64,000 bases of DNA from a virus. Position 1 is the first letter of the stretch, and each line of letters begins with the position of its first letter. The notes beneath the pieces are model-generated. The model did no database searches, had not been told where the DNA came from, and was given only the letters and a program-made list of their open reading frames with translations. A program made the translations under genes and the position numbers. The stretch covers positions 1-64,000 of IMG/VR virus record IMGVR_UViG_3300010413_000022. One strand, written 5' to 3'. Shown here piece after piece: positions 1 to 56,955 of the stretch.

Positions 1-1359
1 ACCATCATTATCATAACTAAATATATCCGCTACAAATCCAACAGCATCATAAGTATTATCAATTAAATAATTGACATTGCGTAATAATGTATAAACATAG
101 CCTTCAGTAAAATTACATTCATAAACCCAATTACCAAATCTATTAAGTATAATACTATCAATATCATAACATATAATTGTTTTTGATATTGAAGCAACTC
201 CACCACCCCCTATTGATGTAATTGCAGAATGAAGTTTATTGTTCCCAACAAATGCAACTTCTCGTATTTTTAACCTGGATTGGTGTGATACTGATAATAT
301 AGAAGTTCCTGAAAAAATCAATGAAGGTGTCCATAACATACACCTTACAAATGAATGTTCACCCATATTATCCCTCTGTTCAAATGCGGGCCTTATTGTT
401 ATAGAAGATTTTATAATAGTGCCAACAAAATTTAAAGCAGATAAGGACATGTTATTGTACCCTCCTGTTATAATTTGTAAACAATCAAAAATGACACCAA
501 AATCAAATTCATAAGGTATTGTCAATAATTCAAAACTAATTTCAGTTGTGGCCACAAATTTTATTTTTCGAAATAACATACCACTCACACCCGGAAAGTT
601 CATAACCAATGTTCTTGTATCTAATCCGGTCAAATCAAACGTAGTTACAATGTTAACAACATCACGAGAGCCTCCACGGTTACCCCTCATATGTGTCAAA
701 TCGAAACTATCTGTTCCAGCACCATTATAAGGAATTGGATAGAATTTTGCTCCGTCACCATCTGAAATAAAATAGCCGCGCCATTGATTTTCTGTTACTG
801 TAACGCCTGCTTTCGACGCTGTATACTCACAAGTATTGGTTGCTTTTTCAGCTAATGAAATACCAGCCTCTATAACTTCTACATCACCATACCATTCAAT
901 ACGTACATTTGAATATGTCTTTGTTGATAATTTATATTTTACATTATCCCATTCTGACATAGTAAAAATACCTATGAAATAAAATCTTATAGTAATGTCA
1001 GCTACAAATCCAGGTATATCATCTACAGCCCTACCAAGTGTTAAATATGGAGTTCCTGAACTCCCATCACCTGTAGTATCATTACCAGTAGTAGAAATGT
1101 ATAAATCAATATCAGTAGAGGGTGATATAGTATTTATTTTAGTCTCTACAAACTTGTCATTATCAACACCTCCAATCAGTTGATACCAACTATAAGGTGA
1201 AAGAACATTAAACAACATTCCTTCTTTACGCTTTGCTGTTGGAAAAGAGTCTCTTGCTGTTATATCAGCAACCGTTTGAAATCCACCTTTTACCTGTGAT
1301 TGGTCAACCAAAGGTAATTGTGCATTATTGTGTACTAATTCATCGGGATAAGGTAACAT
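1..1359 (-). CDS. Beta-helix tail fibre/tailspike protein (partial, runs off the left end)
   Basis: The reading frame is open from ATG 1359 to the window edge, giving 453 residues with no stop, so the C-terminus is missing. After a short N-terminal region the protein has the pattern DLYISTTGNDTTGDGSS followed by a PYLTLGRAVDDI-like segment. This is the usual entry into right-handed parallel beta-helix (pectate-lyase-like) domains of phage tail proteins, and many Val/Ile/Phe-rich strands follow. It is the most distal known gene of the tail operon and starts 14 nt after the previous stop. A receptor-binding or polysaccharide-binding/depolymerase tailspike is the natural reading. No catalytic residues can be assigned, and a purely structural fibre is possible. 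Confidence 0.75.
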   Translation of the reverse strand, partial: MLPYPDELVHNNAQLPLVDQSQVKGGFQTVADITARDSFPTAKRKEGMLFNVLSPYSWYQLIGGVDNDKFVETKINTISPSTDIDLYISTTGNDTTGDGSSGTPYLTLGRAVDDIPGFVADITIRFYFIGIFTMSEWDNVKYKLSTKTYSNVRIEWYGDVEVIEAGISLAEKATNTCEYTASKAGVTVTENQWRGYFISDGDGAKFYPIPYNGAGTDSFDLTHMRGNRGGSRDVVNIVTTFDLTGLDTRTLVMNFPGVSGMLFRKIKFVATTEISFELLTIPYEFDFGVIFDCLQIITGGYNNMSLSALNFVGTIIKSSITIRPAFEQRDNMGEHSFVRCMLWTPSLIFSGTSILSVSHQSRLKIREVAFVGNNKLHSAITSIGGGGVASISKTIICYDIDSIILNRFGNWVYECNFTEGYVYTLLRNVNYLIDNTYDAVGFVADIFSYDNDG

Positions 1360-1373
1360 AAAGTTTATTTTTT

Positions 1374-3611
1374 TTAAATTATTACTAATGATGTTCCACT
1401 TGCAAAAGCTTTATCAGCATTTGAAATATAAATACTATAGTCCTCAGCAATACCAAAATCATTAGTATAACTGATTTCTCCAATTTTAGTGAATGCTCCA
1501 AGAACAGGCAATGCTCCATTTTGTATGATACTGCTTAAATCACCGAATTTTGCAGCATAAGCTATATAAGTATAATATCCAGACGTATCATTGTTGCTGT
1601 CACACGTAACAGATGCAGCCCTTCCAGTACGCAATGCCTGTGTCTGCATTGTATCAAGTACAGCTTTTACTTCTGCAGGAGTAGAGCTGCCATTGAGAAC
1701 TACATTACTAGCTCCAAAGAAGTGCCTAAACAACCAGCTTCTTGTGAAGCTTGCCGGGCTTATTGGATTACCTTCTCCATCTTCTCCGGTAACCTGCCAC
1801 TGGCTTGAACCATTTGTCAGTAATTGTTCCTCACTTCCGGGGTCAGAAGATGTTACCAGTGAAGGTGCAGCTTTATTGAATCCTGTACCTGAAATATACA
1901 TGTTAGCAGGGTTCTCATTATTACTATCCTGAGTTACGGCTATTGTTGCATTTCCAATAGTAGCAGTTTCACCAACCTCATAAGAACTCTTAGCAGGGGC
2001 AAGCTCTACATTTAATGAGTTTAATGTAGGTGGTTGATACGGTGCTAATATACCGTTAAGAATTGTTTCTATTTTACTACCTGCTGTTATAGTGTCTCCG
2101 GGTGAATAAATACCTTTTGTAACTGTTACATTAATATCACTTTCAATTTGTTCCCTAATCCTAGAGCCTTTTACAGCAAAGAATTGATTAACAGCATTAG
2201 CATTGTCTACAGTGGAATAAATTAAATCACCAACTGAAACATCAGTAAAAGGAACTAAACTGGTAATTGTTCCAGCTACAGAAACCCTCCAATAATCACC
2301 TTTAAGAATTACACCGCCAACACCAGAACCGTTGTTTGTGGGTGGTATTGAACCACCACTGGCATCGTGTACTCCGGCATACGTTCCAACAACTCCTGTA
2401 CCTGCACCTAATTCTGAGGCTGTTATAAACCTATTTGTTGCAGATGGGTTTGTTGATGCAGTCATAGCATCTTTTTCATTTTGGCTTGGTATACGAGGGT
2501 CATCTGAATCAAGCTTTTCATCCCAATTAACATTTGCCTGAGTAGCAAAGAAATCAGCCGCCTCGTTTGCATCATTAACAGAAGCGTGTATAATATCACC
2601 AACTTCTAATTCCTCAACCGGGGTAAGTCCTGTTATTGTTCCTGCAACTGTTACCCTCCAATAATCACCTTTTACAATAGCATCTGATTCACCGCTACCT
2701 GTAGTTGGCAACCCTCCGGAAGCATCATGTCCACCAACAAGAGTTCCAAGTGATGCAATGGCTGAGTTTAATAACGATAAAGTTACAAGAGGGTTTCCAC
2801 TGCTTGGACTTGAAGCATTATGTAAAGCATCAGCTTGGTCTTGGTTCTGTGGCAATAAAGTGCTATCATTCTTTATGTAATCAGCAAGGCTTATGTTCCT
2901 ACTTACGGCAAAGAATTGTCCTGAGTTAGCTGCACCGTCTACGGCTGCATAAATTAAATCACCAATAGATAATTCTTCCTCTGGAAGTAACCCTGTAATT
3001 GTGCCAGCTACAGACACACGCCAAAAATCACCTTTTTTAATAGCACCGCCGTCACCTGAACCACTTGTAGGGCTTGGAAGGTTACCACCATTAACGGCAT
3101 GGTCACCTCTAAATTTTTCATCGGCATTTGTTGAGCCTCCTGTACCTGCAAAGTCATCTTTAGTGCCTACATATTCATAAAAACTAATCTTTGGAGGCAT
3201 GTTTGATGCAGGTGCGCCTCCATAGAAATACAATATCCTCGAATTTGGGCTTTTTAACCACCTAAATTGACCTTTAGGTATCGGGGTGTCATTGCTATAA
3301 GTTAATTGCCAGTCGTAGCTAATACGGTCACCATATTTAAAACTGATGGCATTCGATAAGTATTCATGATAATAAGCGTTTGAACTTCCCGGTACTGGTA
3401 GCAATGTTAATCCAACATGACGTTTAACAACACCACTTGTTTCTCCATCTAATAAAGTTGGTGCAGTATTTGGTATCAAACTTTTCTGTGTCCAAACACG
3501 GTTATCGAGCGGATCTTCTTCAAAGTAAAATTTACCTGTGTTTGTTTCCTCAAATCCCTGTAGAACTTTGAATAATAACCTTACCGCTTCTTCTGTAGTA
3601 AGTAGTGACAT
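1374..3611 (-). CDS. Tail protein with three internal ~65-residue repeats
   Basis: 745-residue virion protein. The middle part (about residues 165-500) contains three copies of a module with the pattern G-x-H-A/D-x-x-GG ... KGD(F/Y)WRV(S/T)VAGTIT ... VGDLIY, ending in a Phe-Phe-Ala stretch. Modules of this kind recur in tail proteins of Bacteroidota phages. The C-terminal part (about 510-745) lacks the repeat and may be a separate binding domain; it contains a segment like ITAGSKIETILNGILAPYQP. It lies 1 nt downstream of the preceding tail gene, so it is co-translated with it. Function is inferred as an appendage or adhesin-like part of the tail tip. Confidence 0.6.
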   Translation of the reverse strand: MSLLTTEEAVRLLFKVLQGFEETNTGKFYFEEDPLDNRVWTQKSLIPNTAPTLLDGETSGVVKRHVGLTLLPVPGSSNAYYHEYLSNAISFKYGDRISYDWQLTYSNDTPIPKGQFRWLKSPNSRILYFYGGAPASNMPPKISFYEYVGTKDDFAGTGGSTNADEKFRGDHAVNGGNLPSPTSGSGDGGAIKKGDFWRVSVAGTITGLLPEEELSIGDLIYAAVDGAANSGQFFAVSRNISLADYIKNDSTLLPQNQDQADALHNASSPSSGNPLVTLSLLNSAIASLGTLVGGHDASGGLPTTGSGESDAIVKGDYWRVTVAGTITGLTPVEELEVGDIIHASVNDANEAADFFATQANVNWDEKLDSDDPRIPSQNEKDAMTASTNPSATNRFITASELGAGTGVVGTYAGVHDASGGSIPPTNNGSGVGGVILKGDYWRVSVAGTITSLVPFTDVSVGDLIYSTVDNANAVNQFFAVKGSRIREQIESDINVTVTKGIYSPGDTITAGSKIETILNGILAPYQPPTLNSLNVELAPAKSSYEVGETATIGNATIAVTQDSNNENPANMYISGTGFNKAAPSLVTSSDPGSEEQLLTNGSSQWQVTGEDGEGNPISPASFTRSWLFRHFFGASNVVLNGSSTPAEVKAVLDTMQTQALRTGRAASVTCDSNNDTSGYYTYIAYAAKFGDLSSIIQNGALPVLGAFTKIGEISYTNDFGIAEDYSIYISNADKAFASGTSLVII

Positions 3612-3612
3612 A

Positions 3613-5313
3613 TTATACGATATTAGATATTGTTATTCCTGAAAATTTCTTGTTATCACCCATTGGTAAGCCAACTCTTACGTAGACTAACCCGGTTCTC
3701 AATGTATCACCAAAAGAAACCCTTTTGCTTGTAGCAGTACTATCAAATAGAACCATGCAAGCATCACCATCGTTTACCGGGCTGCCAGTTAAGCTGAAAG
3801 CTTTGTTTGCATCAAGCCAACCTGTTATTCCCTGAACTTTTACCTGAACAAATAAATCAGTGGTTTCTTCGCCTGAGAAGTTTTCAGCATCATTGATAGT
3901 AATTGTGAAACCACTTGCATTATTTACTGAAAATGCAGCTAATGGAATACAAAATCTTTCATCTGTACCCATGCCATTGTCAAAATCTTCACCGGCTGTT
4001 GGTAGGTTTGCAGTGTAGTTTCCGGAAGGTGCTTGATACTTTCCGTTTTTCATTTGTAGTTCACCTGTATACACAGTTTTTATTGACTGTGTAGGGTCAA
4101 AAGCTACTCCATAACCAGAGGCAGGGTATAAACCTGACCCGGCTGTTAATCTTTGGCTTTCGTCAGAAACATCATCAACATAAGCATTTGTTGAAATAAT
4201 GCTTGAAGCTCCTGCATTACCTTTACTGTTGTAACCTATTGCAGTTATATTCAACGCAGCAACAAAAGTGTCTGCTAATATTTGCAATGTATCTGAAAGG
4301 TTCATTATAGCTCCCTCATTTGGAGGTGTGACAGGAGGAGCTATATCTTTTGAATCAGTACCGTCTCCTGTAATATGAGCTACTCTTGTAGGGTGGTAAT
4401 GTGTTTGAACGGCTCCTGAAATATCAATTTCAACACCAATATTATCACCACTCTGTAAAGAGGGAACGCCTGAAATGTATTTAGTAGCATTCGCTGGCAA
4501 CGTAATTATACTATTTGACACAACGGGCGTTCCCGGATTATCCACGTAAAACGAGAGTAAAGCACTTAGTCCTGTTTCTGAATGTATTAACCTGTATGTA
4601 TGTTGAGCAAAAGTCAAGGCACTTGTAGCCCTAACAATTGCATTCAAAACTTTATAAATACCCTGTCCAAGTTGACCGTCATAGGGGTCTCCTTCACTTA
4701 CTATTTCAAGAGTGTTGTAAGTGCCTGAATTATCATTTTCATCAAGTGGTACTGTATCTTGGACAACACTATCAATCTCACTTGACAAATCACCACTTGA
4801 AGCATTATATACATCATCAATTGAGCCGTCAGGTGTTGTATCATCAGTACACTCATGCAGGTCTCCTGTAGCCGCCGCAAGAGCTTGATAGGTTACCATA
4901 GTCAAAATCATTCCGGTTAAACCCGGAGGTGGTGAAGGTATAAGGGCTGCTAATGTTGTTTCATGAGCATCCAAAGCCTCCTCAACATTACTGTATCCAT
5001 AATTAGTATAAGATACTATTGCCGCCGTAATAGTAGATATAGAGCCTATTATTTGCCACTTAGCCGGATGAGTTACCGGGGTTTCACCTGCATTTGTATC
5101 TGTAATGCACTTATAAATCTGATTGTCAGTAAATGAAACATGTTCATTTTGTTGGTATTTCTTTGTGTTTTGAAACACCTCAAATAAGCCTCTGCTCTGA
5201 ACAATGTCAATTAACCTACTTCTTAACTTATCTGCAGATATTAAACCTTGGGTATTTTCAACCATGTCAATAACCAACTGTTCAATTAAGGCTGTTGTAT
5301 CTCTGTTTGCCAT
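3613..5313 (-). CDS. Tail/baseplate appendage protein with a chitinase-type carbohydrate-binding-like segment
   Basis: 566 residues. Near residues 50-90 the protein reads like a small CBM5/12-type fold: QNEHVSFTDNQIYKCITD, then Pro/Thr-rich residues and PAKWQII. Such segments are common in phage tail proteins and often bind surface glycans. The remainder is rich in Thr, Ser, Asp and Val and looks like a beta-structured fibre or head-binding domain. The start codon overlaps the previous stop by one base (TAATG). The call as a host-recognition component comes from position and composition; no enzymatic motif is visible. Confidence 0.55.
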   Translation of the reverse strand: MANRDTTALIEQLVIDMVENTQGLISADKLRSRLIDIVQSRGLFEVFQNTKKYQQNEHVSFTDNQIYKCITDTNAGETPVTHPAKWQIIGSISTITAAIVSYTNYGYSNVEEALDAHETTLAALIPSPPPGLTGMILTMVTYQALAAATGDLHECTDDTTPDGSIDDVYNASSGDLSSEIDSVVQDTVPLDENDNSGTYNTLEIVSEGDPYDGQLGQGIYKVLNAIVRATSALTFAQHTYRLIHSETGLSALLSFYVDNPGTPVVSNSIITLPANATKYISGVPSLQSGDNIGVEIDISGAVQTHYHPTRVAHITGDGTDSKDIAPPVTPPNEGAIMNLSDTLQILADTFVAALNITAIGYNSKGNAGASSIISTNAYVDDVSDESQRLTAGSGLYPASGYGVAFDPTQSIKTVYTGELQMKNGKYQAPSGNYTANLPTAGEDFDNGMGTDERFCIPLAAFSVNNASGFTITINDAENFSGEETTDLFVQVKVQGITGWLDANKAFSLTGSPVNDGDACMVLFDSTATSKRVSFGDTLRTGLVYVRVGLPMGDNKKFSGITISNIV

Positions 5314-5519
5314 TATTGTGCATTTAAAAGTTTCTTCAATTCCTGAGTATTAGCAATAGCACCTAATAACTGGTTGCGTTGCTCTGAGATTTCATTTAAT
5401 CGTTCTTGGTAAGCATTTATTTGACCAACTATTTGGTTATACTCACCGTCAAGAGTTTGAACTTGCTTTGACAAATCAATCTCTCTATCATCAAGTATTT
5501 TTTTTTCTTCTTTAGTCAT
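5313..5519 (-). CDS. Small coiled-coil protein in the tail operon
   Basis: 68 residues, almost entirely charged/Gln-rich heptads (an ILDDREIDLSKQVQTLDGEY-like pattern through to the C-terminal ELKKLLNAQ), predicted as one long coiled coil. It sits between the ATP-grasp gene and a tail appendage gene and is coupled to the latter through TAATG. It could be a fibre trimerisation/attachment peptide or a small chaperone for the downstream fibre. I do not recognise a family. Confidence 0.6.
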   Translation of the reverse strand: MTKEEKKILDDREIDLSKQVQTLDGEYNQIVGQINAYQERLNEISEQRNQLLGAIANTQELKKLLNAQ

Positions 5520-5558
5520 TTTACAAATCGTTATACATTTTTACAAATCGTTATACAT
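5519..5558. repeat. Perfect 20-bp tandem duplication at the ATP-grasp stop codon
   Basis: Positions 5519-5538 and 5539-5558 are identical (unit TTTTACAAATCGTTATACAT on the plus strand). The upper copy encodes the last residues and stop of the ATP-grasp protein (MYNDL-stop). The lower copy repeats those codons and stop as a non-functional echo just before the next start codon. It looks like a recent slippage or duplication event. Confidence 0.9.
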
Positions 5559-6374
5559 GTCATCAATCAAAAATTCAAACGTAATACTGTCATCATAATC
5601 CATTAATGACCTATGAAAATAACCACCTTTATTAAGAATAGGCATAGAGTTAACATCAAAAACATATACTCCTGAATCATTTACTCTAAAATCAATTCTT
5701 AACCCAGCGTTTGCCTCAACCTCATCATATATTGAAACAACCATCTCTTTAACAAGATTGCGAATTTCATTTTTCTTGTTGTAATCAAGAGTTTCCTCTA
5801 CTGGATTATTGCCAGCCCAAACCTCAGTTTCAGGTGTTATCTGTACCGGGTTACCAATTATACCTTTGTACATTGAAATGGTGTATTCTTGACCTTCAAC
5901 ATACTGTTCGATATGGCAACCTTCAAGGTTAACTTTCTTAAACTCAGAAAGGGTATTTACGAAAACAACACCCTGACCACCTTCTCCACTTGTAGGTTTA
6001 ATAACACATGGATATTTTGGGTTCTTATAAACTTTAGGTCTTAATATGCCAAGCTTATCAAGAACCTCATAAGTCTTTAATTTATCGTAACAAATACCAT
6101 GTGTCTTACTTCCATTATTATTGAAAGATATGTTGTTGGCTTCGAGAATAGACTGTAAAGTACCATCATTTCCAAACCCTCCATAAGTGACTAAAAATAC
6201 ACCATCAAGTGCAATACGGTTCAGCATTCTTTCAAGGTCATCAATACCACGTATTAAAAACGGTATAACATCTTTGCCGTTGTTTAGTAATACATTGTAA
6301 ATATTACTGACCGAAGCGTAAGAAAAACCTCCGGGTTCACCAACCATATTTCCAAGAATGATAACTTTTTTCAT
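5541..6374 (-). CDS. ATP-grasp ligase, D-Ala-D-Ala-ligase-like, inside the tail fibre operon
   Basis: 277 residues with the Ddl/carbamoyl-phosphate-synthase ATP-grasp layout. The N-terminal domain carries a GNDGTLQ segment (residues 68-74; Ddl has G-E-D-G-x-x-Q). Next come the nucleotide-binding lysine in CVIKPTSGEGGQG (K126, with the flexible Gly-rich loop) and an adenine-side IEQYV-E-G-x-E stretch (about 155-163). The metal/substrate end is R226-x-D228 ... D240-x-N242-S-M-P, matching the R-x-D ... E-x-N-x-x-P signature with Asp for Glu. The key residues look intact, so an active ligase forming an amide or ester from a carboxylate is plausible. It overlaps the upstream fibre gene by one base (TAATG). 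Substrate unknown: cell-wall peptide or post-translational tailoring of a tail protein are both possible. Confidence 0.8.
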   Translation of the reverse strand: MKKVIILGNMVGEPGGFSYASVSNIYNVLLNNGKDVIPFLIRGIDDLERMLNRIALDGVFLVTYGGFGNDGTLQSILEANNISFNNNGSKTHGICYDKLKTYEVLDKLGILRPKVYKNPKYPCVIKPTSGEGGQGVVFVNTLSEFKKVNLEGCHIEQYVEGQEYTISMYKGIIGNPVQITPETEVWAGNNPVEETLDYNKKNEIRNLVKEMVVSIYDEVEANAGLRIDFRVNDSGVYVFDVNSMPILNKGGYFHRSLMDYDDSITFEFLIDDMYNDL

Positions 6375-8227
6375 TACGATACTTTTTTGAGTGGTAAATA
6401 AAACCCTGTAGCAACAAGGCTTATATTTTTTTTGTCAAAATCTTTTATGTTAAATGAAAGCTCTATTAATTCACCTTTCCTCAAAACTAAATCCTTACTG
6501 AAATCTATATCTGGCTTAAGTGTTTTTGAGCCATCAGTAAGCAATATAGAATTAATGAAGGTAACCTCATCTTTTTCCTCAGTTATATAGAGCTTTAATT
6601 TATTAGACTGTATTATAAACTCAGGTATCCTGAGAGTTTCTGTTTTTTCGCCAAAGGTATATCTTGCCTCTTTTAGAATCTCATTTACAAACAGTTTTTT
6701 TTCGTTGTATTCAATGTAAACGTAAGGACAAGCAATCTGTCCATCAAATTGATGCTGTAACTCAAAATTAGTATAAGCTCCTTTTAAGTATGACCTAAAT
6801 ATTGGTCTTGTTCCTACATAACCACCGTTATTAATAGCACTCAAAACAGAACTTGTGCTTGTACCAACTGTATTACTTGCATTGTTTACAAGCCTGATAT
6901 AATTCAAAATATCCAGCTTACTATAAGTAATTGTAGGTATTCTATTTATTGATAGCGTACCTGTAGTAATTTTACTGGCATCAAGAGACGGTATCCTTGC
7001 AGAATTTAAAGTGCCAGATGTTATTTTACTGGAATCCAGTGAAGGTATACGGTCTGCGCTAAAAGTACCAGATGTTATTTTACTGGCATCTAATGAAGGT
7101 ATACGTGATGTAGACAGAGTACCTGTAGTGATTTTACTTGCATCCAGTGAAGGAATGCGTAATGTACTGAGTGTACCAGTTGTTATTTTGCTGGCATCCA
7201 AATTAGGTATTTGAAATGCACTCAAAGTGCTAGTAATATCACTTGCCGGGTGAGAATGGTCTCCTCTGGCAACGCTGTTTTCGCTTCCGTGGTCTCCTCC
7301 ACTGCCTGAATAATTATGAGTGACATGGTTGCCAAGCTGTAAATTATTTCTTGCCGTTTCTGCATTGTCAAACGTATTGTCACATTTACGGCTATTACTC
7401 AATCGTGAATCATTACCTTGACAAACAGTACCAGATGCAGTACCAAAGTTTTTATTAAACGCTGAGTTTTTAGTGAACACAGGTTCATAAACATTAGTAT
7501 GTAAATGGTCACCTCTGGCTATATTATTTTGACTTCCATAATTACCTCCTGATCCGATAAAATTATAAGTGACATGATTGCCAAGCTGTAAATTATTCCT
7601 CATTGTTGAAGGTGTACCTTCACTTAGATTATTTGATATTTTAAACCTTGAATTTATATCTGCCTGAGTTGGTGTTTGCCAATTTTCAAGAGCTTCAATC
7701 CTTGCCAGGAAACCATTACCAGCAAAGTCAGGCTGAATACTTTTTGTGTAAACTACATTAGCATCATCAAGGCTTGACATGTTAGCAGGAACATACAACA
7801 TACCAAGTATTAACTGTCTCCTTTCAGTTGTTAATGATGGAGGAACCGGTGTTGCACTTGGAGTTCCTTTTATGACACTATATATTGAAGGTTGACCTCC
7901 TGTAACCTGCAAGTAAATATGTTCAGCAACTATAAGGTCAATCCTTGGCAAAGAACCTCCTACATCAATAGGTATTACAATACTTTCATCTTCCTTGATC
8001 GTGACACCTTGCTTAGTAATATAAACGCCTTTAGGGTCAGTGTATAACTCATCCTCATCAACGGTTACTACTCCGGAAGTTGTATGTTCAAGAACCAAGT
8101 TGAGACCTGTATTCAATTGAGCATCAAAACCGTGATACAATCCCGGCTTTATTAATTCTGAATACCTTTGATTTATCTCAAACGTACTATCATCAGCTTC
8201 AAATTCAAATATCCTTTTTTGTGCCAT
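6374..8227 (-). CDS. Tail fibre protein with 15-residue repeats and GDHxH motifs
   Basis: 617 residues. The N-terminal part (1-190) resembles a baseplate-attachment domain and ends in FLARIEALENWQTP. Next come two QLGNHVT ... ARGD-H-x-H modules (about 210-330); HxH pairs of this sort bind metal ions along trimeric fibres. Residues of about 333-430 contain six near-identical 15-residue repeats with consensus IPSLDASKITTGTLS-x-x-R, which fits an extended beta-spiral shaft. A C-terminal globular domain follows. The gene is coupled to the ATP-grasp gene downstream. Inference: long tail fibre. Confidence 0.75.
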   Translation of the reverse strand: MAQKRIFEFEADDSTFEINQRYSELIKPGLYHGFDAQLNTGLNLVLEHTTSGVVTVDEDELYTDPKGVYITKQGVTIKEDESIVIPIDVGGSLPRIDLIVAEHIYLQVTGGQPSIYSVIKGTPSATPVPPSLTTERRQLILGMLYVPANMSSLDDANVVYTKSIQPDFAGNGFLARIEALENWQTPTQADINSRFKISNNLSEGTPSTMRNNLQLGNHVTYNFIGSGGNYGSQNNIARGDHLHTNVYEPVFTKNSAFNKNFGTASGTVCQGNDSRLSNSRKCDNTFDNAETARNNLQLGNHVTHNYSGSGGDHGSENSVARGDHSHPASDITSTLSAFQIPNLDASKITTGTLSTLRIPSLDASKITTGTLSTSRIPSLDASKITSGTFSADRIPSLDSSKITSGTLNSARIPSLDASKITTGTLSINRIPTITYSKLDILNYIRLVNNASNTVGTSTSSVLSAINNGGYVGTRPIFRSYLKGAYTNFELQHQFDGQIACPYVYIEYNEKKLFVNEILKEARYTFGEKTETLRIPEFIIQSNKLKLYITEEKDEVTFINSILLTDGSKTLKPDIDFSKDLVLRKGELIELSFNIKDFDKKNISLVATGFYLPLKKVS

Positions 8228-8258: not shown

Positions 8259-8915
8259 TTATTTATCAAAAGACGAGTTAAATGATTCATTAAATGAACC
8301 TTTACCGCCGTCAACAATTACATCAATATCAGTACCGTTGTAGGTAATACTCCTGAGAGTAGCCCAAATCGGCTCATTGAGTTCAATAACATTGTAAATT
8401 ACCTGTACAAGTGATTCACTTATAGGTGCTGTTCCTGTCAAAACAACATCGTAAAAACCAGACAATGCACCCCGGCTGTCAAACCTTCTCTGGTCACTAT
8501 CCAGAGTTAGTGTTGGGTGATCAAATCCGTTTGAACTTGTACCCTCAATTATCTCTACTGTATCAAAGCCTAACATGCGAAAAAACTGCTCATAGGCAGT
8601 TATTGTTCCTTTTATATTGTATAGGCTATACATTAGAGGCAATATCTTACGCCTGAAATAATTATCTGTATATATTGGCAAATGTAGACCTATCCTACTT
8701 TCCTCGTAAATAATATATTTTTCAAGCATGGTAAAAGGGTCAACAAGATTTTCTATGAAATAATTAACTAAGTCAAGTTCATTATCATCCAAGTCTCCTG
8801 CCAGAAGTTCATTAAACCTTTGGCTTAGTCCTTTACCGTTTGAATCTTTGTATTTATCATCAACCTTTGCGGCTAAACCAAAAAACCCGAATATTATATT
8901 TACAAGCTTAAACAT
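8259..8915 (-). CDS. Baseplate wedge protein, P2 gpI-like
   Basis: 218 residues. The segment with paired Glu/Tyr residues leading to YFRRKILPLMYSLYNIKGT and then FFRMLGFD is characteristic of the phage tail protein I family, in which a small helical domain packs on the J-like wedge. It follows the J-like gene with a one-base overlap, which is the canonical J-I gene order of P2-like and related contractile tails. The C-terminus ends with a repetitive SFNESFNSSF tail that may contact the fibre. Confidence 0.7.
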   Translation of the reverse strand: MFKLVNIIFGFFGLAAKVDDKYKDSNGKGLSQRFNELLAGDLDDNELDLVNYFIENLVDPFTMLEKYIIYEESRIGLHLPIYTDNYFRRKILPLMYSLYNIKGTITAYEQFFRMLGFDTVEIIEGTSSNGFDHPTLTLDSDQRRFDSRGALSGFYDVVLTGTAPISESLVQVIYNVIELNEPIWATLRSITYNGTDIDVIVDGGKGSFNESFNSSFDK

Positions 8916-10591
8916 TAGACAATACCTCCTGTTCCTGTTATTACAATATCCTCAGACTTACTAACAATTATTGAAAACTCATCCAGTTTTATAATACCTG
9001 CATTTAAGTCTGGCTTTGGATATGTTTTGAAAATATAAATATCATTTGTTTCATAGCTCTCAGTCAATACTGTAAACTCAATATCATTAAGTGTTACTGT
9101 ATCATCTACTGAATAACTGGCAATGAAATTATTGTTTTTAAACAGGTTGTAAGTAGTAGGTGAAGTAAATTGAATTTTATATGTGTTGCTTGTAGCACCT
9201 GCATCAATAACATCAATAGTCCAGTTTAATTGAACAGTATCAGGTCTTGAAGGGCTTGCATACGGTATGATGTTTGTATCAAGTATTTGACTATTTAACA
9301 CACCGTCTGTATTTTCAAGTATCTCGTATAAATCACCAATTACCAATTTGCCAGCAATATCAGCATTTTGCCAGCTTAATAAATCCAGTAAGTTTTGTTT
9401 GGCTAAATTCACCGTGTCAACTTGATTATACCCGGTAAGAACATTAACCACACACTCTATTTCTAACCTAACCTCACCTACTGCTTGCGCCCTGATAACT
9501 GTTTGAACGCTTCTCTTATCCTCAAAGAACAATTCAACTTGCTCCAATAAAACTGAGCTCGCAATACCTCCACCTGTTGGAACAACATAAGCCGTTACTC
9601 CTGTGGTAGCATTATAGGCAACTGTAGCCTTCGCAACCCCCGGCGCAAGCGTGGCAATATCAATGTAGTCTTGGTCAGTAACAGCCCTCATTTTAGTCCT
9701 TATTGACAAAGGAATGTTAACCCTTAACTCCTCTAAGCTCTCAACATCTGCGCCTCCATTGGTATTGTTTTCATTAGTTACTGACAACTGAATTCCACTA
9801 GGTAATGTAATACTATCAACTATTTCAGTTATGCTATTCTCAGGAACATTGCCATTAGAACCAAGACTTGTATAATATGAAATTTCTATGTCTGCGGCTG
9901 ACTGTGGTATTTCTCCGGTAATATCATCACCAAATTTTATCACCATTTGCTTCTCTACATTCAAGCCGGGAACATAAACCCTATCCTCTGGCTTAACAAA
10001 AGCAAAAGTGTCTACGGCTGTGAATATTTGGTTGCCAGCAACGGTAACTGTCATTGATTTATCAACAACATCACTTTCAAGAGTTATTTCTTGGTTTATA
10101 TCACCGCTGGATTGACCCCACGTATATTTTGGCACTAATGTCCATTGTTTAACATCAGCCTCAACCTGTGTTTCGTTAATTGGAATAACAACCTCTGTTA
10201 AAGTAAGAAACTCAATGTTTTGAGCTGTCCTTAATTTAGTTCCGGAAGGTATTACAATTGCTTCTGTAGCTGGGTTGTCAGCCGTGAATAAAACCTTACC
10301 AACACTAGCATAAACACCATGTATCCTATAATCATGCCCTCTGGCATGAGCTACCATACTGGAATACTTTCTACATGTTATAAGAAAACGCTCTCTTGCT
10401 TTCTTGTTAAGATAGTAACCAAGTTGTTCACTTATTCCTGACCATATACCAGTCATTTTAATGAAATCATTACCCTCACTGTAGTCTGTTATCTCCGGGA
10501 TACCTACTGTTGGGCTTTTAATCTTATCAACAATAGCTGATTTAATTGCTAAATAAGACCTTTCTGCATAGTTTATAAATGGATTATTCAT
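8915..10591 (-). CDS. Baseplate wedge protein, J-like (gp6/gpJ family)
   Basis: 558 residues. The centre has the typical baseplate J pattern: an AHARGHDYRIHGV-like start, a beta-rich middle, the block NGGADVESLEELRVNIPLSI, and then RAVTDQDYIDIATLAPGVAKA. The last block (a threonine-start domain followed by D-Y) is the hallmark of J proteins. It builds the wedge ring that changes conformation on sheath contraction. It lies between the gp25-like and I-like genes, as expected. Confidence 0.85.
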   Translation of the reverse strand: MNNPFINYAERSYLAIKSAIVDKIKSPTVGIPEITDYSEGNDFIKMTGIWSGISEQLGYYLNKKARERFLITCRKYSSMVAHARGHDYRIHGVYASVGKVLFTADNPATEAIVIPSGTKLRTAQNIEFLTLTEVVIPINETQVEADVKQWTLVPKYTWGQSSGDINQEITLESDVVDKSMTVTVAGNQIFTAVDTFAFVKPEDRVYVPGLNVEKQMVIKFGDDITGEIPQSAADIEISYYTSLGSNGNVPENSITEIVDSITLPSGIQLSVTNENNTNGGADVESLEELRVNIPLSIRTKMRAVTDQDYIDIATLAPGVAKATVAYNATTGVTAYVVPTGGGIASSVLLEQVELFFEDKRSVQTVIRAQAVGEVRLEIECVVNVLTGYNQVDTVNLAKQNLLDLLSWQNADIAGKLVIGDLYEILENTDGVLNSQILDTNIIPYASPSRPDTVQLNWTIDVIDAGATSNTYKIQFTSPTTYNLFKNNNFIASYSVDDTVTLNDIEFTVLTESYETNDIYIFKTYPKPDLNAGIIKLDEFSIIVSKSEDIVITGTGGIV

Positions 10592-32966: not shown

Positions 32967-33299
32967 CTAAGTCACTTTTAAGGGTGGTGTTAAACTAACT
33001 TTGAATATGCTTAATTTGCCCTTGTAAGGTACAAAATTAAGTTGAATAGGGTTTTGGAATATCCAGCTTGGAGAAGATAAGGTAACAATTCTACCACCGG
33101 GTTCACAAACCTCATACATGGTAAGTATATGGTCAATATCCTGTCTGTTAGAAAATGGAGGATTTGCAATAATAGTCGCAAAGTGATTTTTATAGCGTTT
33201 TGCTACCTGATTGTAAAGCTTTCTTTCAAGCTGTATCTCTGGTAAAAACACTGTAGTACCTTCAATGGTACATTCTTTTAATACGTCTACTTCTGTCAT
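32967..33299 (-). CDS. Fragment of a DNA adenine methyltransferase
   Basis: 110 residues. Contains the catalytic NPPF tetrad in FATIIANPPFSNRQDIDH, followed by EPGGRIVTLSSPSWIFQ, exactly the core of N6-adenine (and some N4-cytosine) DNA methyltransferases. The AdoMet-binding motif I (F-x-G-x-G) that should precede it and the C-terminal part are missing, and neighbouring DNA does not encode them in any frame I read. Either a decayed remnant or a miniature protein with another role. It does have a proper start and stop. Confidence 0.7.
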   Translation of the reverse strand: MTEVDVLKECTIEGTTVFLPEIQLERKLYNQVAKRYKNHFATIIANPPFSNRQDIDHILTMYEVCEPGGRIVTLSSPSWIFQNPIQLNFVPYKGKLSIFKVSLTPPLKVT

Positions 33300-46120: not shown

Positions 46121-46591
46121 CTATACGAAACCAATTTGAGACAGGTAATTGTTAATAACTCCATTTTCCTGTATATGGTCATAAAGTTCACTGAGGGTCA
46201 TACTGCAAGCTGTAGCAACTTCCTCCGGATACTTATATAGAAACACGGCTTTTAATAACTTTTTACCTTCAATATCATTTTTTAAATCCTCCTTGGCGCA
46301 ATATTCACCCCAGAGTGTAAGTTTACCTACTAACCGGGTCATAAATCCATTTTGTTTGAGGAATTTATCAAAGTCCAGCTCTGTTAGGTGCTTCATTCCC
46401 ATCATAATCATTCTCTGGGTATGTGCTTTTACAGCTTCCTCACAGAAATCCATAAAGCCCGGTTCTGTTCTGGCATATTCAGCCATCTCCTCAACATCTC
46501 TAAGCAGGTAATGACAGGATTTAGTAAAGCCATACCCGGAGTTCAGGCTGGCTTTAAATACCTGTAGTTCGTTGTCATTGAGTTCAATCAT
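46121..46591 (-). CDS. Hypothetical helical protein
   Basis: 156 residues, helical, acidic, with CEEAVKAHTQRMIMMGMKHL and a C-terminal Asn-rich YLSQIGFV. Overlaps the MazG-like gene by ATGA. Not recognised. Confidence 0.5.
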   Translation of the reverse strand: MIELNDNELQVFKASLNSGYGFTKSCHYLLRDVEEMAEYARTEPGFMDFCEEAVKAHTQRMIMMGMKHLTELDFDKFLKQNGFMTRLVGKLTLWGEYCAKEDLKNDIEGKKLLKAVFLYKYPEEVATACSMTLSELYDHIQENGVINNYLSQIGFV

Positions 46592-47274
46592 TTTTCCAAT
46601 GGCTTAAAGTATCCTTGAATGTTCTCTAAATCTCTTACGAAAACAGCCTTACATTGAGTACAAACAATCTTAACTGTAATTATACCCCGGTGGTCAGCAT
46701 AACTTTCAAAACTCCTGTTATCACAAAAAGGACAATGGTGTTCATTATGTAGGTACTCATCAACCGAAATACAGTTAGGCTCTTTTTCTATTGGAATATG
46801 CGTACCCTCACCTATTTTATCAACCTGCCATTCCCTAAACTGGTTAATCTCAAATTTAGTCCACATGCATTTTAAAATCTGTTCCATAGTGAAACCAGCA
46901 AGCCGGGCGGCATCAATAAGAATACTAAAACAATCAGCATACTCATAAACATCTCCCTGTTTCTTTATAGCTTCTCGAACTTCTTTCTTAAGGTGGTTTA
47001 ATGGTGCAAGCGGTGTCCTGTCAGCTCCAAACGTGTCATTACTCCAAAGTCCATGAATATCTTGGAAGGTTTGGAAGTCTCCGGGGTTATGGTTGTAATC
47101 ATCAATTGGATAAAAGCGTTTAACCTTGTATACGCTGGTACCGAATGCAGCCTTGGCAATTATTAAAGGTTCATCTTCCTCTGGCTCACAAATAGACCTT
47201 ACCTCTATGTTGCCAATTACATTCTTGTTATCCTTTTTATAGTACACTAAGTACTGAAATACTGGTTTGCTCAT
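46588..47274 (-). CDS. MazG-like (DUF550) dNTP pyrophosphohydrolase with C-terminal zinc ribbon
   Basis: 228 residues. Residues 85-150 match the DUF550/dATP-dGTP pyrophosphohydrolase fold of the MazG superfamily: RTPLAPLNHLKKEVREAI (E98-x-x-E101), then EYADCFSILIDAARLAG (E111-x-x-D114), the ExxE ... ExxD metal-binding motif, and a closing FREWQ. This family removes pyrophosphate from dNTPs, and relatives support base-modified phage genomes by depleting a canonical dNTP. The C-terminal CPFC ... CTQC pair (181/184, 205/208) adds a zinc ribbon, an unusual fusion. Confidence 0.75.
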   Translation of the reverse strand: MSKPVFQYLVYYKKDNKNVIGNIEVRSICEPEEDEPLIIAKAAFGTSVYKVKRFYPIDDYNHNPGDFQTFQDIHGLWSNDTFGADRTPLAPLNHLKKEVREAIKKQGDVYEYADCFSILIDAARLAGFTMEQILKCMWTKFEINQFREWQVDKIGEGTHIPIEKEPNCISVDEYLHNEHHCPFCDNRSFESYADHRGIITVKIVCTQCKAVFVRDLENIQGYFKPLEK

Positions 47275-54900: not shown

Positions 54901-55267
54901 GGGTTACGAATGTTATGTTGTTTTTAATTGATTTTTTGATAAAGCCTCTACGCACATAAGTTCCTAAAGACATAGGGGTACAAAAAGCTGTCATTCTAAC
55001 ATCTCCAAATTTATCTTTGATAATCTTAAGCCTTTTCACAAACAACTGGTCGTATACGCCTCTATTCCGGCAATCTTCAACTACAAAATCAGTTTTAAGC
55101 CTTATTGAGTCTCTTAAAACCTTATAGCCTACAAAGCCTGTTATTTTAGTGTTCTCATAGGCTGCAATATATATAGTACCGTCATTCTTTTTGAATGCAA
55201 CCCTAGATTTGTTCAGCTCAGGAACAAATTTATATAATTGACTTTCCTCTATAAAATCCATTTTCAT
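54887..55267 (-). CDS. GNAT-fold acetyltransferase, Mom-like candidate
   Basis: 126 residues. TDFVVEDCRNRGVYDQLFVK is the GNAT acetyl-CoA loop, preceded by two strands and followed by FGDVRMTAFCTPMSLGTYVR and RRGFIKKS, the acceptor half. Phage Mu Mom, which adds an acetamido group to adenine in DNA, belongs to this fold. Membership in an operon with ParB-like and PP-loop enzymes suggests a nucleic-acid substrate, an inference. Overlaps the PAPS-reductase-like gene by 38 nt. Confidence 0.65.
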   Translation of the reverse strand: MKMDFIEESQLYKFVPELNKSRVAFKKNDGTIYIAAYENTKITGFVGYKVLRDSIRLKTDFVVEDCRNRGVYDQLFVKRLKIIKDKFGDVRMTAFCTPMSLGTYVRRGFIKKSIKNNITFVTREAI

Positions 55268-56345
55268 AATCTAAATCTTCTTTGGTTGGTGTAACTCTTG
55301 GAGGTATCATGTGCCTACTGCCTTTAACAACCGTTTTAAAAACGTACAGTAAAGGGTAACCACCAAAGTTTTTTGTACCTCTTTTATTGTCTCTTATAGC
55401 CTTGGCATTTTTTACAAACTTCAAAATCTTATCACGTTCTACCTGTGATGGGTAGCTGTCAATTATGTATTTGTAAATACCGTTCCAAGTTGGTTGATAG
55501 TTCTCAATAGCACTGTACATGTCATAATCGTTATGGTAACGCTCCTGCAAGGTAAGCTCAGGAAACATGTTAACAAGCTGTTGATAAAGTGTAGGGTACA
55601 TACCTCTAAGCTTATGGAATTGCCGGGCTGCCTCCGGGTGTATTGCAGAGGCAACTCTTAAAGGTTTCCCGGCAAACATTTGTATGTTATAAGTGTCGCA
55701 ATAGTCAATTCTCTCATCATAGAGATACTTAAAAATATCATCCTCAGTCCAGTCATATATTGGTTTGCAAACTCTAACATTCTGCAGACTGCTTTTTGCA
55801 ATATAACACTGGTCTCCTTTGTGCTTATTATTGACTATTGACCTAAGCCGGGTAAGGCTTTCATCAGCCCTGACACCTATTACAATTGCAATACGGTTAG
55901 TTTTGTTTTGGAATATAAACTTTTCAAAGGTAGTTTCATCATGTACAATGTCTGATTCATCCTGTATAGCAAACTCAGGTATGGGTCTAATATGCTTGCG
56001 CTTCTTATCCCACTGTATTATACTCTTTGTTTCTCCAAGTATGTATATCTGGCTATATTGCTGTAGAACATAATACCTAAAATTAAACCTTCCGGAGTTC
56101 ATTTTTTTCTCAACAAACTCAATTATATCATCAGATATAAACTCCTCATCACGAAAAAACACATTGAGCTTTGATTTTATGCCTCGCTCTTTGTAAATCT
56201 TATCAAACATTTCAAGTGTAACAAGACTGTCTTTACCTCCTGAGAATGCAATCCAGATTTCATCAAAATTATTGATTATGTTGTTTATCCTGTCTCTTGC
56301 TGCACTTAATACATCAAGATTTAGTTCCTGTTTTACTTTTGTCAT
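55230..56345 (-). CDS. PAPS-reductase-like PP-loop protein (IbrA/DndC-like)
   Basis: 371 residues. PP-loop motif IWIAFSGGKDSLVTLEMFD (32-50) binds and splits ATP. VRVCKPIYDWTEDDIFKYLY is the conserved second block with a Cys in front, as in PAPS reductases and DndC-type sulfur-transfer proteins. A long C-terminal DUF3440-like extension includes RGTKNFGGYPLLYVFKT. IbrA-type proteins are encoded beside ParB-like IbrB partners. Role in sulfur or adenylate transfer to DNA or RNA is inferred. Overlaps both neighbours (32 and 38 nt). Confidence 0.8.
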   Translation of the reverse strand: MTKVKQELNLDVLSAARDRINNIINNFDEIWIAFSGGKDSLVTLEMFDKIYKERGIKSKLNVFFRDEEFISDDIIEFVEKKMNSGRFNFRYYVLQQYSQIYILGETKSIIQWDKKRKHIRPIPEFAIQDESDIVHDETTFEKFIFQNKTNRIAIVIGVRADESLTRLRSIVNNKHKGDQCYIAKSSLQNVRVCKPIYDWTEDDIFKYLYDERIDYCDTYNIQMFAGKPLRVASAIHPEAARQFHKLRGMYPTLYQQLVNMFPELTLQERYHNDYDMYSAIENYQPTWNGIYKYIIDSYPSQVERDKILKFVKNAKAIRDNKRGTKNFGGYPLLYVFKTVVKGSRHMIPPRVTPTKEDLDYENGFYRGKSII

Positions 56346-56955
56346 CTACCTTCATTAATAAGCGTTTCAACGTCTCAGCAATTGTTTCACCTTTCTTCTT
56401 TGATTTGTCAATTATTTCAGTAACGAAAACATAATCATCTTTGTTAGGAAACAACACTTCTAACGTAAAGAACCGGGTTGTTTTAGTTTTACCGCTTGTG
56501 CTGGCATCATCAGAATCATCATTAGGGTTAGATTTTCCCTGTTCAAAATCAAGGTAGTCAAAACCTGAATCTACAAGTATGTCCTTGTTCCAGTTATCAG
56601 AGTTTAACATTTCCCAATCCCATTCACCACCTAGTTTATTAGCAGTAATATTAGCTTTATCCCTTTGCTTTTCATTCCACTTTACAGCCCGGTAAGACAT
56701 GGTTGTTCCATCTTTTAATTCAAAATAACCAAGCTTAACCGTACCCTGAGCATCAGGTTCATCAAACTCTTTAGTAATTACCGGGTCTACACCTTCGAGA
56801 CCAAGAGCTTTAACTCTCTGGTTTCCAGTTATTATTTCATCAGTTTCCAAATCGTGGGTAATACCACTTAAATCTCCCAGCTCAATAATATTCTTCTTAA
56901 GCCTGTCAAGTTCAAACTTGGAGATTTTCCTGGGGTTCTTAAAAAATTCTTTCAT
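56314..56955 (-). CDS. ParB-like (IbrB-type) protein, first gene of the modification-type operon
   Basis: 213 residues. Starts KNPRKISKFELDRLKKNIIE with TDEIITGNQRVKALGLEG, the ParB-N/Srx signature, then a central YFELKDGTTMSYRAVKWN and WDWEMLNSD segment. The C-terminal half contains an acidic Asp/Ser linker and TRFFTLEVLFP. Similar proteins accompany PAPS-reductase-like enzymes in phages. It is preceded by a 6-codon mini-ORF (56952-56972). Confidence 0.75.
   Translation of the reverse strand: MKEFFKNPRKISKFELDRLKKNIIELGDLSGITHDLETDEIITGNQRVKALGLEGVDPVITKEFDEPDAQGTVKLGYFELKDGTTMSYRAVKWNEKQRDKANITANKLGGEWDWEMLNSDNWNKDILVDSGFDYLDFEQGKSNPNDDSDDASTSGKTKTTRFFTLEVLFPNKDDYVFVTEIIDKSKKKGETIAETLKRLLMKVDDKSKTGTKS

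What the first reader, a model, noticed from the sequence alone, without database searches (positions are those of the whole stretch)
5541..6374. ATP-grasp ligase embedded in the tail fibre operon
A complete Ddl-like ATP-grasp enzyme with intact lysine and metal residues is translationally coupled to a tail fibre gene rather than lying among metabolism genes. Ligases of this fold make amide or ester bonds to carboxylates. It may post-translationally modify a fibre (for example adding an amino acid or peptide), or act on host cell-wall precursors. The final metal-binding triplet uses D240 where Ddl has Glu.
Basis: partly seen in the sequence, partly recalled or inferred. Interest (0 to 1): 0.8.

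Follow-up and report, generated by a model that had tools for sequence, protein, structure and literature searches.

The report
Ligase gene in phage tail-fibre operon
A complete phage genome carries, translationally coupled to its tail-fibre gene, an intact-looking enzyme descended from the bacterial cell-wall enzyme that joins two D-alanines, but its D-alanine-binding residues are gone, so it probably joins something else, possibly onto the phage's own fibre.

Summary
ORF 5541-6374 (-), 277 aa, starts on the stop codon of the tail-fibre gene (TAATG). It is an ATP-grasp protein (PF02655 E 4.5e-13; AlphaFold pLDDT 86; best match D-Ala-D-Ala ligase, Z 30.6, 2.0 A over 271 residues). ATP, Mg and acyl-phosphate residues are kept, and D240 replaces a Glu found in 41 of 41 bacterial Ddls. 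The D-Ala specificity set is lost: S150/S151 become GG, K215/Y216 are deleted, S281/L282 become G/Y. It should not be filed as Ddl; it is a divergent Ddl-derived ligase (20-28% identity) with another substrate. The contig is a complete 69.7-kb contractile-tailed phage. None of 34 related records has the gene, and other collections gave nothing closer than Ddl-type enzymes. Codon usage is typical of the phage. Fibre modification is plausible from operon logic but unsupported by substrate evidence (about 0.35); host-envelope or small-molecule modification is the main rival (about 0.3). Known phage ATP-grasp cassettes that I checked sit with early metabolic genes, so the location is unusual. New variant of a known enzyme kind; moderate interest.

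The parts
5541..6374 (-). Ddl-type ATP-grasp ligase, 277 aa, in the tail-fibre operon
6374..8227 (-). tail fibre/adhesin, 617 aa; N-terminal domain shared with fibres of related phages, middle with LDASKITTGTL repeats; stop codon overlaps the ligase start (TAATG)
5313..5519 (-). 68-aa predicted coiled-coil protein, starts 21 bases after the ligase stop, overlaps next gene by one base
3613..5313 (-). 566-aa protein of the fibre operon, match to phrog_8578 (unknown function)
1374..3611 (-). 745-aa repetitive protein of the fibre operon
1..1359 (-). 453-aa visible part of a further operon gene that continues across the contig ends (144-bp terminal repeat)
5519..5558 (.). two exact 20-bp tandem copies spanning the ligase stop codon and the gap to the next gene
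8259..8915 (-). baseplate/tail protein upstream of the fibre, conserved in related phages
8915..10591 (-). baseplate wedge protein J

Best explanation
The gene encodes a working ATP-dependent carboxylate ligase of the Ddl branch of the ATP-grasp superfamily, made together with the tail fibre (so presumably late in infection). SHOWN: Ddl fold (predicted); ATP/Mg and acyl-phosphate residues kept; D-Ala acceptor site and omega-loop contacts lost; translational overlap with the fibre gene; phage-typical codon use. INFERRED: like Ddl it phosphorylates a carboxylate with ATP and then transfers the acyl group to an amine, with the donor still held by E13 and R226 but with a different, possibly larger, acceptor that enters where the shortened loop (about residues 181-201) no longer covers the site. 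INFERRED, weakest step: the acceptor or donor lies on the co-translated fibre or on another protein of the same operon, so that the enzyme is a fibre-modifying or maturation ligase.
For: Pfam and NCBIfam matches. Model with pLDDT 86 and pTM 0.86; top Foldseek and VIA matches are all Ddl/Van ligases. Of 29 columns invariant in 41 bacterial Ddls, 15 are kept, including E13, K98, K126, E156, E163, R226 and N242; D228 is kept too. The 14 changed ones include the D-Ala contacts. DdlB numbering follows from the 1iov and 1iow (Y216F) alignments. S150 and Y216 are described as conserved in D-Ala-D-Ala-only ligases, and the omega loop as important for specificity, in PMC7691350. Residues 181-200 are poorly ordered, pLDDT about 52-54. 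TAATG overlap. Codon use rank 58 of 66, where low rank means atypical. No metabolic gene cluster around it.
Against: No substrate is known. The association with the fibre is seen once: none of 34 related records carries the gene, so conservation of the pairing cannot be tested. Phages pack unrelated genes into overlapping frames. The Glu270 to Asp change could lower activity. The model used a Ddl-based alignment, which favours the Ddl fold.
Confidence: 0.35

Rival explanations
1. The ligase is a passenger (moron) in the tail operon that modifies the host envelope or makes a small amide metabolite, for example to block competing phages or protect the infected cell; the fibre is not its substrate.
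For: The gene is sporadic: absent from all 34 related records, including those that share the fibre site. Phage amidoligase enzymes have been proposed to alter cell-surface receptors (phiEco32 case cited in PMC11318856). Ddl ancestry is a cell-wall pathway.
Against: Co-expression with the fibre is an odd time for host remodelling. No partner enzymes are nearby. The D-Ala contacts are lost. Codon use fits the phage.
Confidence: 0.3
2. Inactive or regulatory remnant: an ATP-grasp fold that binds ATP or serves as a scaffold without ligase activity.
For: E270 to D, an otherwise invariant metal ligand; very long branch, 6.8 changes per column; many other invariant positions changed.
Against: The frame is open, and the changes cluster on the substrate side while the nucleotide and catalytic residues stay. 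Asp can still bind metal.
Confidence: 0.15
3. A true D-alanine-D-alanine ligase used as an auxiliary metabolic gene.
For: Best family match is Ddl (NCBIfam 2.4e-22) and the Ddl fold.
Against: 79 bits against a cut-off of 243. S150/S151, K215/Y216, G276 and S281/L282 equivalents are lost. No other wall-synthesis gene was found among the proteins scanned.
Confidence: 0.05
4. A cyclising or peptide-ligating enzyme that acts on a short peptide of the same operon, in the manner of RiPP graspases.
For: ATP-grasp chemistry; a small 68-aa protein follows directly.
Against: The 68-aa protein resembles coiled-coil proteins and I recognise no leader or core motif in it. Known graspases are of the RimK type (own knowledge), and no RimK model was listed at E 1 or better.
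Confidence: 0.07

Closest known systems
D-alanine-D-alanine ligase Ddl (PF07478/PF01820, EC 6.3.2.4), e.g. Pseudomonas DdlB 8evy, E. coli DdlB 1iow/2dln, B. anthracis Ddl 3r5x
   Same: whole-chain fold (Z 30.6, 2.0 A, 271 residues), ATP/Mg residues, donor-site Glu and Arg
   Different: 20-28% identity; lost S150/S151, K215/Y216, G276, S281/L282; Glu270 is Asp; shortened omega loop; encoded in a phage tail operon
Accessory Ddl-like ligases on plasmids (Paenibacillus polymyxa CP097774, Priestia megaterium NZ_CP085444)
   Same: stand-alone Ddl-type proteins; P. polymyxa is the best-scoring plasmid hit, 2e-12
   Different: beside aminotransferase, desulfurase or lipid genes; they keep the omega-loop FDYxxK motif and the metal-site Glu
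Phage GGCT / ATP-grasp / amidoligase / GATase cassettes (Cellulophaga phage phi14:2, LUZ24-like UFV-P2)
   Same: phage-encoded ATP-grasp ligase
   Different: early gene cluster with partner enzymes (PMC3890496); fold match only TM 0.53 (S0A3B0); ours is single and in the tail operon
R2K clade (CDC123-related) ATP-grasp peptide ligases of phages
   Same: proposed protein-modifying phage ATP-grasp enzymes (PMC4431377; PMC7824862)
   Different: no R2K model was listed for our protein at E 1; ours is Ddl-type

Membership tests
ATP-grasp superfamily | sequence profile above curated cut-off | tested here: met
   PF02655 50 vs 23.2 bits; PF13535 39.9 vs 27; PF07478 37.5 vs 24
ATP-grasp superfamily | two ATP-binding lysines and metal-site acidic/Asn residues | tested here: met
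   K98, K126, D228, N242 kept; the middle Glu is Asp240
Ddl | overall fold | tested here: met
   Z 30.6, 2.0 A over 271 residues to 8evy, on a predicted model
Ddl | curated family score | tested here: not met
   NF002378 79 vs 243 bits; TIGR01205 65.8 vs 245.65
Ddl | Glu15-Ser150-Tyr216 triad | tested here: not met
   Glu kept (E13), Ser to Gly, Tyr deleted; all three invariant in 41 Ddls
Ddl | second D-Ala site Lys215, Ser281, Leu282 | tested here: not met
   deleted, G251, Y252
Ddl | makes D-Ala-D-Ala from D-Ala and ATP | not testable with these tools
   needs enzyme assay
Phage amidoligase cassette | neighbours GGCT, GATase, amidoligase | tested here: not met
   neighbours are fibre, coil and structural-type proteins
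RimK / R2K peptide ligases | profile match | tested here: inconclusive
   no such Pfam model listed at E 1 or better; absence of a hit is weak evidence
Fibre-modifying enzyme | covalent change on fibre dependent on the gene | not testable with these tools
   needs virion mass spectrometry

The most novel reading that the evidence does not exclude
A phage has recruited a Ddl-type ligase, stripped of D-Ala specificity, as a co-translated enzyme that attaches an amino acid or peptide to its own tail fibre, a post-translational fibre modification for which my literature searches found no precedent.
Probability: 0.3. Interest if true: 0.85.

Novelty: new variant of a known kind. Interest (0 to 1): 0.5.

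Why it matters
If the ligase modifies the fibre, phages would have a ribosome-independent way of changing receptor-binding proteins, so host range could not be read from fibre sequence alone. Even if not, it is a clean natural case of a Ddl scaffold that kept its ATP chemistry and shed D-Ala recognition, useful for understanding how ATP-grasp ligases change substrate.

Tried and rejected
Viral collection scans with the single protein, an alignment with Ddls, a second alignment and a P-loop DNA pattern (only unrelated short frames) found no viral homologue. The single-protein genome scan found none; the alignment scan returned Ddl-type enzymes only. 395 Bacteroidota genomes had nothing better than E 1e-14. 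The only INPHARED hits below 1e-3 (MT835910, MT838362, MT835503) look like bacterial contigs rather than phages, two of them carrying miaA/mreB-type or central metabolic genes. The fibre C-terminal domain folded alone is unusable, pLDDT 48. Enzyme-like genes near the fibre or baseplate in related phages: only a muramidase and an S74 chaperone among ten tested. The tree cannot place the protein inside or outside Ddl reliably because its branch is too long. Papers on ATP-grasp with tail fibres: none relevant. Iyer et al. 2009, the key review of phage amidoligases, is not held, so a tail-linked case described there cannot be ruled out.

Full report
Observation. ORF 5541-6374 on the minus strand encodes 277 aa from an ATG. 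The stop of the 617-aa fibre gene and the ligase start read TAATG, a one-base overlap; the 68-aa gene follows 21 bases after the ligase stop and itself overlaps the next gene by one base. The operon runs fibre, ligase, coil protein, 566-aa protein, 745-aa protein and a further gene that continues across the contig ends. The contig ends share an exact 144-bp repeat, so the 69,702-base record is very likely a complete genome. Baseplate V, J, GPD, LysM and CIS-tube proteins and a minor tail protein (tape measure) show a contractile-tailed phage. The host is probably in the Bacteroidota: an inference from relatives among gut and Salinibacter phages and from lipoprotein style, not a test.

What the protein is. 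Pfam places it in the ATP-grasp superfamily with three models above cut-off. NCBIfam's best model is Ddl but at 79 bits against 243. No PHROG matches at E 1. AlphaFold with 41 bacterial homologues gives pLDDT 86.3 and pTM 0.86. Every listed top PDB match is a Ddl or Van ligase: Foldseek E 4.0e-21, and VIA Z 30.6 at 2.0 A over 271 residues. Viral structure matches are weaker, TM at most 0.63.

Active site. In 41 bacterial Ddls 29 columns are invariant. The phage protein keeps 15 of these, among them E13, K98, K126, E156, E163, R226 and N242 (E. coli DdlB E15, K97, K144, E180, E187, R255, N272), and also D228 (D257). It changes 14: S150/S151 become GG, K215 and Y216 fall in a deletion, G276 becomes I, S281 becomes G, H63 becomes Y and E270 becomes D240, among others; L282, present in 37 of 41, becomes Y. 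The K215/Y216 columns were fixed by the 1iov and 1iow (Y216F) alignments. The residue roles for D-Ala binding come from established Ddl structural work (own knowledge); PMC7691350 states that S150 and Y216 are conserved in D-Ala-D-Ala-only Ddls and that the omega loop matters for specificity. The pattern, catalytic side kept and substrate side changed, fits an active ligase with another substrate better than decay, but does not prove activity.

Distribution. Baseplate-based searches gave 32 related viral contigs and five earlier records. Protein search, Pfam search and a Ddl profile found no ATP-grasp in the 34 records or 37 loci searched, while the Pfam control rang in 14 of 14 reference genomes. 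Many of these records are fragments, so absence in any one is weak. The closest of them (L035, baseplate 38% and fibre N-terminus 44% identical) has small proteins in place of the ligase. Very close relatives exist only as short fragments (TerL 80%, capsid 61%). Plasmid and genome searches return ordinary or accessory Ddl-type enzymes, identity to the phage protein 20-28% against a mean of 43% among the Ddls. Codon use is typical of this phage (58th of 66, low rank meaning atypical), so the gene looks long resident. A perfect 2 x 20-bp tandem repeat spans its stop codon; whether it marks an old insertion is unknown.

Mechanism. Most likely: ATP phosphorylates an amino-acid-type carboxylate held by E13/R226 and the acyl group passes to an amine that is not D-Ala. 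The shorter, poorly ordered loop around 181-201 would leave the site more open. That the acceptor is the fibre is an inference from co-translation only. Main rivals are a passenger enzyme acting on the host envelope or a metabolite, and an inactive remnant.

Known systems. Phage ATP-grasp genes that I could check sit in early cassettes with GGCT, GATase and amidoligase genes (Cellulophaga phage phi14:2; UFV-P2, PMC3890496) or are R2K ligases suggested to modify host proteins (PMC4431377, PMC7824862). None of the papers found links an ATP-grasp enzyme to a fibre gene. The protein works like a Ddl-type ligase in its ATP half but fails the tests for Ddl membership on the substrate side.

Verdict. 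Real, intact-looking, unusual in location and in active site; function undecided. New variant of a known kind, interest 0.5.

Noticed in passing
46588-47274 (-): dATP/dGTP pyrophosphohydrolase domain (MazZ type, PF04447 1.2e-14) without an adenylosuccinate-synthetase (PurZ) gene in the record.
   Followed up: partly
55230-56345 and 56314-56955 (-): PAPS-reductase-like protein overlapping a ParB-like protein, an IbrAB-like pair; the related phage L035 has a 50% identical ParB-like gene inside its tail module (4847-5398).
   Followed up: no
L136:2449-2850 (record 66348-66749): Stand-alone response-regulator receiver domain (PF00072 2.5e-15) in a phage genome.
   Followed up: no
1-144 and record end: Exact 144-bp direct repeat at both contig ends; the record is very likely a complete genome.
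   Followed up: yes
5519-5558: Perfect tandem duplication of 20 bp across the ligase stop codon.
   Followed up: partly
6374-8227, residues 347-461: Fibre repeats 43-44% identical to minor tail proteins of Mycobacterium phages such as Angel and Rabbs, despite a presumably very different host.
   Followed up: no
L002, L004 (MT835910, MT835503): Records filed as bacteriophage that look like bacterial chromosome, with ddl beside miaA/mreB or central metabolic genes.
   Followed up: yes
32967-33299 (-): Short 110-aa frame with an N6-methylase-like NPPF motif, perhaps a truncated methyltransferase; no Pfam match.
   Followed up: no
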